Assembly (NCBI GenBank): GCA_001821555.1
Contig: MHMM01000005.1
Location: forward strand, 6,956 to 59,021
From: Candidatus Nealsonbacteria bacterium RIFOXYB1_FULL_40_15
Lineage (GTDB): Bacteria; Patescibacteriota; Minisyncoccia; Minisyncoccales; GWA2-38-27
Reading direction: 5' to 3'
Length of the DNA: 52,066 nt
Of this stretch, positions 48,885 to 49,431 are shown in pieces; the first letter of the stretch is position 1; the number at the start of each line of letters is the position of its first letter. The notes below the pieces were generated by a model. The model did no database searches and was not told the DNA's origin. It worked only from the letters and a program-made list of their open reading frames with translations. Position numbers and translations under genes: made by a program.

Positions 48885-49115
48885 CTAGATGCTTACATTA
48901 ACTGTTCCTTTCTTTTTGGCGCTTTTCAGCATTTTATCTTTAAGTAAAGCTTCAAGATAACACCGAATAGCATCTTTTGCCATTTCTTTCGCCTCTTTAA
49001 GGTTGTTTCCCTCTGTTACAAGACCGGGGAGTTTTGGGACAGTTACTGTATATCCTTGGCCGTTATTTTCAAAAACTACCTCAAAGTTATAGATTGTTTG
49101 TTTTCTTTGCTTCAT
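48885..49115 (-). CDS. hicB: HicB-like antitoxin
   Basis: 'VVFENNGQGYTVTVPKLPGLVTEGNNLKEAKEMAKDAIRCYLEALLKD'; start corrected from 49373 to 49115. Confidence 0.88.
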   Translation of the reverse strand: MKQRKQTIYNFEVVFENNGQGYTVTVPKLPGLVTEGNNLKEAKEMAKDAIRCYLEALLKDKMLKSAKKKGTVNVSI

Positions 49116-49237
49116 ATTTTTTATTATATCAAAATAACAGGTTATAATCAAATTAAAAATATCCGCACTAATTGTGAGGGATTTTTTAATCCTTGCTTTA
49201 CCGGAATAATTGAATATAATGTAAATAGCACGTTTTT

Positions 49238-49372
49238 GGGGCCGTAGCTCAGTTGGTAGAGCACAAGGTGAGCTCATTCTCGCTAACCAAGCTTGCAAGC
49301 GCTGGTTCAAATGAAAATTTGAATCAAGATGAGTGAGGCTTGAGGTCGTGGGTTCGAATCCCGCCGGCTCCA
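49238..49372 (+). tRNA. tRNA-Ala-like gene interrupted in the anticodon loop region (about 62 extra nt); intron-containing or pseudo-tRNA
   Basis: Acceptor ggggccg/cggctcc with G3.U70, D-arm GCTC..GAGC, T-arm GTGGG-TTCGAAT-CCCGC, but 69 nt between CAAGG (27-31) and GCTTG (39-43). Confidence 0.65.
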
Positions 49373-49397
49373 ATTAGCCTGTAAGGGGGTGCAGGCA

Positions 49398-49431
49398 AAA
49401 AGAGCCTCTTATTCTTAGGGGCTCTTTTTTA
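49398..49431. terminator. Terminator between tRNA-like gene and efp
   Basis: AAAGAGCCTC...GGGGCTCTTTTTT. Confidence 0.8.

What the first reader, a model, noticed from the sequence alone, without database searches (positions are those of the whole stretch)
49238..49372. tRNA-Ala-like gene with a structured ~62-nt insertion in the anticodon loop
Acceptor, D and T arms are intact and canonical, including the G3.U70 alanine identity pair. Between CAAGG (27-31) and GCTTG (39-43) there are 69 nt instead of 7. The insert can fold: CTCAT...ATGAG closes two hairpins, AACCA...TGGTT and TTCAAAT-GAAA-ATTTGAA. A TATAAT box at about 49216 and a terminator at 49398 suggest transcription. It is far shorter than known group I introns, and no clean splice choice restores U33 plus an Ala anticodon. 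Either a novel small tRNA intron/insert or a repurposed tRNA-like RNA.
Basis: partly seen in the sequence, partly recalled or inferred. Interest (0 to 1): 0.7.

Follow-up and report, generated by a model that had tools for sequence, protein, structure and literature searches.

The report
Extra alanine-tRNA-like gene without anticodon
This bacterial genome carries a spare alanine tRNA-like gene whose codon-reading loop has been replaced by a long folded arm; five similar but unrelated-in-sequence cases turned up in other Patescibacteria, so it may be a tRNA reused for a job other than reading codons, although a recent dead gene copy cannot be excluded.

Summary
In detail: 49238-49372 scores 52.7 bits as a tRNA, with 7/7 acceptor pairs (G3.U70), intact D and T arms, and 69 nt where the 7-nt anticodon loop belongs. 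The insert folds better than shuffles (z about -3). It is not an ordinary intron: no single excision gives a 5-bp stem with U33, and it matches neither of two short-tRNA-intron families that I met in phages and bacteria. It is not needed for decoding: the 99%-complete genome has intact Ala-GGC, -UGC and -CGC tRNAs and a tmRNA. It is single-copy, with no counterpart in 246 relatives. The same architecture (spare isoacceptor, intact body, loop replaced by an arm that folds well in five of six) occurs in five other Patescibacteria (Pro-, Gln-, Ala-, Gly-like and one unassigned), with unrelated insert sequences; four of six, the window included, have a well-placed promoter-like site. Best reading: a transcribed, non-decoding tRNA-like RNA that AlaRS could charge, reused off the ribosome (about 0.45). 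Main rival: recent, still undecayed pseudogene (about 0.37). An intron is unlikely (about 0.12). No expression evidence was available. By-product: widespread 43-73-nt tRNA introns near position 28/29 in phage and bacterial tRNAs.

The parts
49193..49220 (+). promoter-like site TTGCTT - 16 nt - TATAAT, 17 nt upstream of the tRNA-like 5' end
   Evidence: 9/12 consensus matches; shuffle p = 0.08
49238..49244 (+). acceptor stem 5' strand GGGGCCG, with G3 of the G3.U70 pair
   Evidence: 7/7 pairs with 49365-49371
49247..49262 (+). D arm GCTC-AGTTGGTA-GAGC
   Evidence: 4/4 pairs, canonical D-loop residues
49264..49268 (+). anticodon stem 5' strand CAAGG (27-31; G31 faces G39)
   Evidence: 4/5 pairs with 49338-49342
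49269..49337 (+). 69-nt sequence in place of the 7-nt anticodon loop
   Evidence: one copy in the genome
49267..49284 (+). 5' hairpin GGTGAG-CTCATT-CTCGCT of the minimum-energy fold
49288..49342 (+). long imperfect arm CAAGC...GCTTG capped by a GAAA tetraloop (49313-49316); takes in the canonical 39-43 strand
49338..49342 (+). anticodon stem 3' strand GCTTG (39-43)
49348..49364 (+). T arm GTGGG-TTCGAAT-CCCGC
   Evidence: 5/5 pairs
49365..49372 (+). acceptor 3' strand CGGCTCC with U70, and A73; CCA is not encoded
49397..49429 (.). intrinsic terminator, symmetric, at the end of the convergent EF-P gene

Best explanation
A transcribed, non-decoding tRNA-Ala-like RNA. Its own promoter-like site would give a short-leader transcript ending at the terminator; RNase P, 3' trimming and CCA addition would mature the ends as for any tRNA; AlaRS, which reads G3.U70 and A73 and does not need the anticodon, could charge it; EF-Tu could bind its acceptor/T half. 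With no anticodon loop it cannot decode, and the long structured arm replaces the codon-reading end, so it would act off the ribosome (alanine carrier, AlaRS or tRNase decoy, or regulator, with the arm as binding site). Shown: anatomy, structure above chance, spare status, absence from the searched relatives, recurrence of the architecture. Inferred from known tRNA biology: transcription, maturation, charging and any function.
For: Body fully canonical. Insert folds better than shuffles. Spare gene beside a complete Ala set. Simple insertion into a loop should leave an excision that restores the loop; none exists for the window, so the loop was replaced, not interrupted, and the body stayed intact. 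Five further Patescibacteria cases: L330/L352 (Pro-like), L418/L451 (Gln-like), L430/L502 (Ala-like), L449, L450 (Gly-like), with acceptor pairs 6 or 7 of 7, T stem 5/5, RF00005 48.1-52.7 bits, anticodon stem 5/5 and running on for 5-10 contiguous pairs, arm z = -6.6, -4.4, -5.3, -4.4, -0.7. In the four other genomes where identity could be assigned, all cognate isoacceptors expected are present without it. Promoter-like sites 12-19 nt upstream in L330 and L430 (10/12, p = 0.004 and 0.015) and in the window and L450 (9/12, p = 0.08 and 0.05).
Against: No expression or charging data. No orthologue in any sampled relative, so no sign of conservation or covariation. The five analogues share architecture but no insert sequence, so they need not share a function. 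The window is the least extended of the six and its canonical anticodon stem is not the favoured pairing (probability 0.014). The cases were selected by a pattern that fixes D-arm and T-loop letters and then by acceptor pairing, so only the T stem, arm folding and promoter sites are independent evidence. Two of six promoter scores and one of six arm folds are unremarkable.
Confidence: 0.45

Rival explanations
1. Recent tRNA-Ala pseudogene: an extra, perhaps horizontally acquired tRNA-Ala had its anticodon loop replaced in one event (insertion with deletion, or template switching at the hairpin) and has not yet decayed.
For: Complete Ala set elsewhere, single copy, no orthologue in 246 relatives, unrelated inserts in the analogous cases. 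Other tRNA debris (5' halves, repeated 3' ends) is common in Patescibacteria.
Against: Not one defect in the body; arm folding beyond chance in five of six cases and an arm continuing the anticodon stem for 7-10 bp in four; promoter-like sites kept in four of six.
Confidence: 0.37
2. A functional tRNA with one or two small introns in the anticodon arm, removed by an unknown nuclease/ligase.
For: Short introns do occur in tRNA genes of bacteria and phages: 49 of 75 insert-bearing tRNAs from two sequence collections give a canonical arm on a single excision, against 8% of shuffles. CTTGCAA, an Ala-UGC anticodon loop, lies inside the window insert.
Against: No single excision gives 5 pairs, U33 and R37. 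Two introns around CTTGCAA would leave a G31/G39 mismatch, and such cognate 7-mers are expected by chance: shuffle p = 0.37, 0.34, 0.14 and 0.11 in four cases, none in a fifth, combined about 0.26. No match to models of two short-intron families. The tRNA is not needed.
Confidence: 0.12
3. Assembly or chance artefact, for example a chimera of two tRNA genes.
For: The genome is a 21-contig draft and tRNA repeats can misassemble.
Against: Seven perfect acceptor pairs across 121 nt, an Ala identity pair, a structured insert with no other copy, and five analogues in other genomes; reversed-pattern controls gave no hits.
Confidence: 0.05

Closest known systems
tmRNA (SsrA)
   Same: Ala-type acceptor with G3.U70, T arm, no anticodon loop, long insert where the anticodon would be; scores 32.3 bits against RF00023, below its cut-off of 47
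   Different: Has a full D arm, is 135 nt rather than about 350, no tag sequence recognised; a genuine tmRNA lies elsewhere in the genome at C13 (103 bits)
Intron-bearing tRNAs of phages and bacteria, including the 'enigmatic' Lak megaphage introns (PMC6784885)
   Same: tRNA body with a structured insert of 43-73 nt
   Different: Those found here restore a canonical arm when excised, mostly at 28/29 or 29/30; this one does not and lacks their motifs
Group I introns in bacterial tRNAs
   Same: Insert in the anticodon region
   Different: Potential self-splicing introns in bacterial tRNA genes are mostly over 200 nt (PMC8450103); no group I family matched here
Archaeal pre-tRNAs with bulge-helix-bulge introns
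   Same: Extended, structured anticodon arm
   Different: The canonical 37/38 site gives no U33 in the window; bulge-helix-bulge motif and splicing endonuclease not tested
Allo-tRNAs and other non-canonical tRNAs (PMC7609411)
   Same: Extra tRNA-like genes with unusual arms, some with G3:U70
   Different: Allo-tRNAs have 8/4 or 9/3 acceptor/T arms and keep an anticodon; here the 7/5 body is normal and the anticodon loop is absent
Intervening sequences of bacterial 23S rRNA (from general knowledge)
   Same: A loop replaced by a long hairpin, a possible RNase III substrate
   Different: In tRNA this would remove the codon-reading part; not tested

Membership tests
functional elongator tRNA-Ala | 7-bp acceptor with G3.U70 and A73, D arm, 5-bp T stem with TTCGAAT loop | tested here: met
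functional elongator tRNA-Ala | 7-nt anticodon loop with U33 and an NGC anticodon on a 5-bp stem, directly or after one excision | tested here: not met
short tRNA introns of phages and bacteria (families A and B defined here) | single excision restores a canonical anticodon arm | tested here: not met
   window best: 5 pairs but no U33
short tRNA introns of phages and bacteria (families A and B defined here) | family motif: TTATC or TTACTTC at the 3' end (A), hairpin plus CAGCAA (B) | tested here: not met
   covariance models R1 and R2 do not match the element at E of 1 or better; R1 is a weak model
group I intron | match to a group I family model in Rfam | tested here: not met
   E up to 10
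archaeal-type tRNA intron | bulge-helix-bulge motif and tRNA splicing endonuclease in the genome | not tested
tmRNA | RF00023 at gathering score, tag reading frame | tested here: not met
   32.3 bits against 47; real tmRNA elsewhere
spare tRNA-like RNAs with a replaced anticodon loop in Patescibacteria (defined here) | RF00005 above cut-off, acceptor 6-7 of 7, T stem 5/5 | tested here: met
spare tRNA-like RNAs with a replaced anticodon loop in Patescibacteria (defined here) | cognate isoacceptors complete without it | tested here: met
   (window); for four others
spare tRNA-like RNAs with a replaced anticodon loop in Patescibacteria (defined here) | anticodon stem continued by a long structured arm | tested here: inconclusive
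   arm structured (z -2.7) but only 4 contiguous canonical pairs; alternative pairing preferred
pseudogene | no expression, degenerating body | tested here: inconclusive
   body not degenerate; expression not testable

The most novel reading that the evidence does not exclude
Patescibacteria repeatedly turn spare tRNA genes into expressed, chargeable but non-decoding RNAs by replacing the anticodon loop with a long structured arm: aminoacyl-RNAs that serve some purpose other than codon reading. The window gene is the alanine version.
Probability: 0.35. Interest if true: 0.8.

Novelty: new variant of a known kind. Interest (0 to 1): 0.5.

Why it matters
If expressed and charged, it would be an aminoacyl-RNA that cannot take part in decoding, in small, reduced genomes that keep few extra RNAs. 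It gives a concrete set of six genes to test for non-decoding uses of tRNA (amino-acid donation, synthetase or tRNase decoys). It is also a caution: ARAGORN at default settings misses this gene, and insert-bearing tRNAs cannot be taken as intron-containing without a splice test. The side survey suggests that short introns in phage and bacterial tRNAs are more widespread than the single paper found here reports.

Tried and rejected
Single-intron model: all 17-nt arms from every prefix/suffix split, 4- or 5-nt variable region, no canonical solution. A shifted 4-bp-stem reading by hand gives U33 but only four stem pairs; rejected. Two-intron model using CTTGCAA: matches expected by chance. Degenerate tmRNA: rejected. 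Multi-copy mobile palindrome: no other copy in the genome. Integration site: a DNA search of the genome with the whole gene finds only itself. Phage or plasmid origin: no blastn hit for the RNA in either collection, no exact 23-mer of the insert in viral contigs. Orthologue next to EF-P: ten genomes checked including its own, only one other tRNA (L069) and no counterpart. Literature: ten searches, nothing on such RNAs in Patescibacteria. My first acceptor-pairing count of the pattern hits was off by one position and was redone.

Full report
The window (G000, a 761-kb, 99%-complete draft genome that falls among Patescibacteria-type genomes) contains at 49238-49372 a tRNA-like gene that Rfam scores at 52.7 bits (cut-off 29) and that ARAGORN misses at default settings. 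The body is canonical: seven acceptor pairs including G3.U70, four D-stem pairs, five T-stem pairs, T8, A14, A73. Where a 7-nt anticodon loop belongs there are 69 nt.

G31 and G39 do not pair, so the flanking stem is CAAG/CTTG. The favoured fold (-53.4 kcal/mol) does not use that stem: the 3' GCTTG pairs with an inner CAAGC to make one long imperfect arm capped by GAAA, with a short hairpin GGTGAG/CTCGCT on the 5' side; forcing the canonical stem costs 2.4 kcal/mol. Folding exceeds dinucleotide shuffles: z = -3.49 for the whole RNA and -3.28 for the arm, -2.70 for the bare core.

The genome does not need the gene for decoding. Its other tRNAs include intact Ala-GGC, Ala-UGC and Ala-CGC and there is a genuine tmRNA at 103 bits. 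The insert has no second copy. Neither the gene nor its pattern occurs in any of 246 relatives of the same order; the same-family genomes belong to other genera. Around EF-P, the downstream neighbour, ten family genomes including this one show no counterpart. Phage and plasmid collections have no match.

Is it an intron? For 75 single insert-bearing tRNAs (the window itself among them) I asked whether removing one stretch leaves a 17-nt arm with five pairs, U33 and a purine at 37: 49 do, against 8% when inserts are shuffled, and 35 of the 49 have the junction after position 28 or 29. So short tRNA introns are real and common there. The window is not one of them: its best product has five pairs but no U33. 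It lacks the motifs of the two main families, and covariance models of those families (R1, R2) do not hit it, while R2 does find further members in phage contigs. R1 is weak and its silence counts for little.

I then searched Patescibacteria with three D-arm patterns (roughly 900 genomes, reversed-pattern controls all zero). Most hits are tandem tRNAs or tRNA debris. Five are single tRNA-likes with acceptor pairing of 6 or 7 out of 7 and an insert in place of the anticodon loop: L330/L352 in G565 (Pro-like C1-G72, A73; anticodon stem identical to that genome's own tRNA-Pro(CGG)), L418/L451 in G957 (Gln-like U1-A72, G73), L430/L502 in G514 (Ala-like G3.U70), L449 in G338 (identity not assigned) and L450 in G484 (Gly-like, U73). 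RF00005 scores are 48.1-52.7 bits. In all five the anticodon stem pairs 5/5 and continues for 5-10 contiguous pairs; arm z-scores are -6.6, -4.4, -5.3, -4.4 and -0.7. In the four genomes where identity can be assigned, the cognate isoacceptors are complete without the gene (Gln CUG/UUG, Ala three, Gly three, Pro three). Insert sequences are unrelated. Five of the six, the window included, have no fully acceptable single-excision product; L430 has one, but with a Gln anticodon on an Ala acceptor.

Promoter-like sites lie 12-19 nt upstream of the 5' end in four of six: 10/12 matches in L330 and L430 (p = 0.004, 0.015) and 9/12 in L450 and the window (p = 0.05, 0.08); two are unremarkable. L450 is followed by a GC-rich hairpin and T run (read from the sequence); the window's terminator lies at the end of the convergent EF-P gene.

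A tempting alternative was that a cognate anticodon loop hides in each insert (CTTGCAA for Ala-UGC in the window, CTCGGGT for Pro-CGG in L330, TTCTGAA for Gln-CUG in L418, TTGCCAC for Gly-GCC in L450) and that two introns flank it. Shuffles produce such matches often (0.37, 0.34, 0.14, 0.11) and L430 has none; my combination by Fisher's method gives about 0.26. I reject it.

Interpretation. A simple insertion into an anticodon loop should leave an excision that restores the loop. None exists here, so the loop was replaced; yet the body has no defect. Together with the recurrence in unrelated spare tRNAs, this favours an RNA kept for its tRNA body and its new arm, not for decoding. AlaRS recognises G3.U70 without the anticodon (established knowledge; see also PMC7609411 on G3:U70 allo-tRNAs), so charging is plausible. 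The opposing view, a recent one-step replacement in a spare gene that has not yet decayed, fits the lack of orthologues and the unrelated inserts nearly as well. Selection on pairing (pattern, then acceptor cut-off) inflates the apparent intactness of the set; the T stems (30 of 30 pairs), arm folding and promoter sites are the independent parts. I put the non-decoding RNA at 0.45 and the pseudogene at 0.37. Transcription, charging and function are all untested.

Novelty: no paper in the library describes such RNAs in Patescibacteria (ten searches; the most direct). The library lacks most subscription papers, so this is weak evidence of novelty. The nearest published facts are the 'enigmatic' introns of Lak megaphage tRNAs (PMC6784885) and reviews of non-canonical tRNAs (PMC7609411).

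Noticed in passing
L092, L115, L141, L160, L216, L220, L222, L240, L253, L279, L287, L291, L305, L306 (pattern hits): Family B of short tRNA introns in Lachnospiraceae and viral contigs: 43-57 nt, hairpin followed by (A)CAGCAA, mostly inserted after position 28 or 29; removal restores canonical arms for Ile-UAU, Asn-GUU, Lys-UUU, Phe-GAA and others. L279 carries several in one tRNA array (model R2 hits at 660, 786, 915 besides the one at about 1189).
   Followed up: partly
L099, L126, L146, L154, L163, L165, L190, L195, L201, L217, L226, L317 and others: Family A of short tRNA introns (Nostoc, Calothrix, viral contigs): 49-63 nt, small hairpin, 3' end GGGTTATC or GTTACTTC, mostly at 28/29 or 29/30. 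A possibly related set with GGCGAATGCCGGACGGAACTACA occurs in L132 (Rhizobium), L166, L177, L185.
   Followed up: partly
L176, L303, L302, L292: tRNA-like sequences nested inside the anticodon loop of another tRNA; in L303 removing the inner one leaves a Lys-UUU arm. Similar to the nested tRNA reported for Lak phages.
   Followed up: no
L399, L406, L409, L432, L433, L437, L438, L439 and others (Patescibacteria): 5' tRNA halves ending in the anticodon loop, followed by CCCCG(TTAG) or CCCGCC motifs, just upstream of a complete tRNA; recurrent in many genomes.
   Followed up: no
L086, L157, L392, L396, L412, L415: Complete tRNA genes followed within some 25-50 nt by a second copy of their own 3' end, like remnants of integration sites.
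   Followed up: no
G000:C6:9236-9311 (L046): tRNA-like gene with anticodon UUA (reads UAA), 45.3 bits; a possible ochre suppressor or pseudogene.
   Followed up: no
window 48885-49115, minus strand: HicB-like antitoxin gene (PF15919) divergent from the tRNA-like gene; no toxin partner was noticed next to it. The ORF called at 48885-49373 is this gene extended by read-through of the antisense of the tRNA-like gene.
   Followed up: partly
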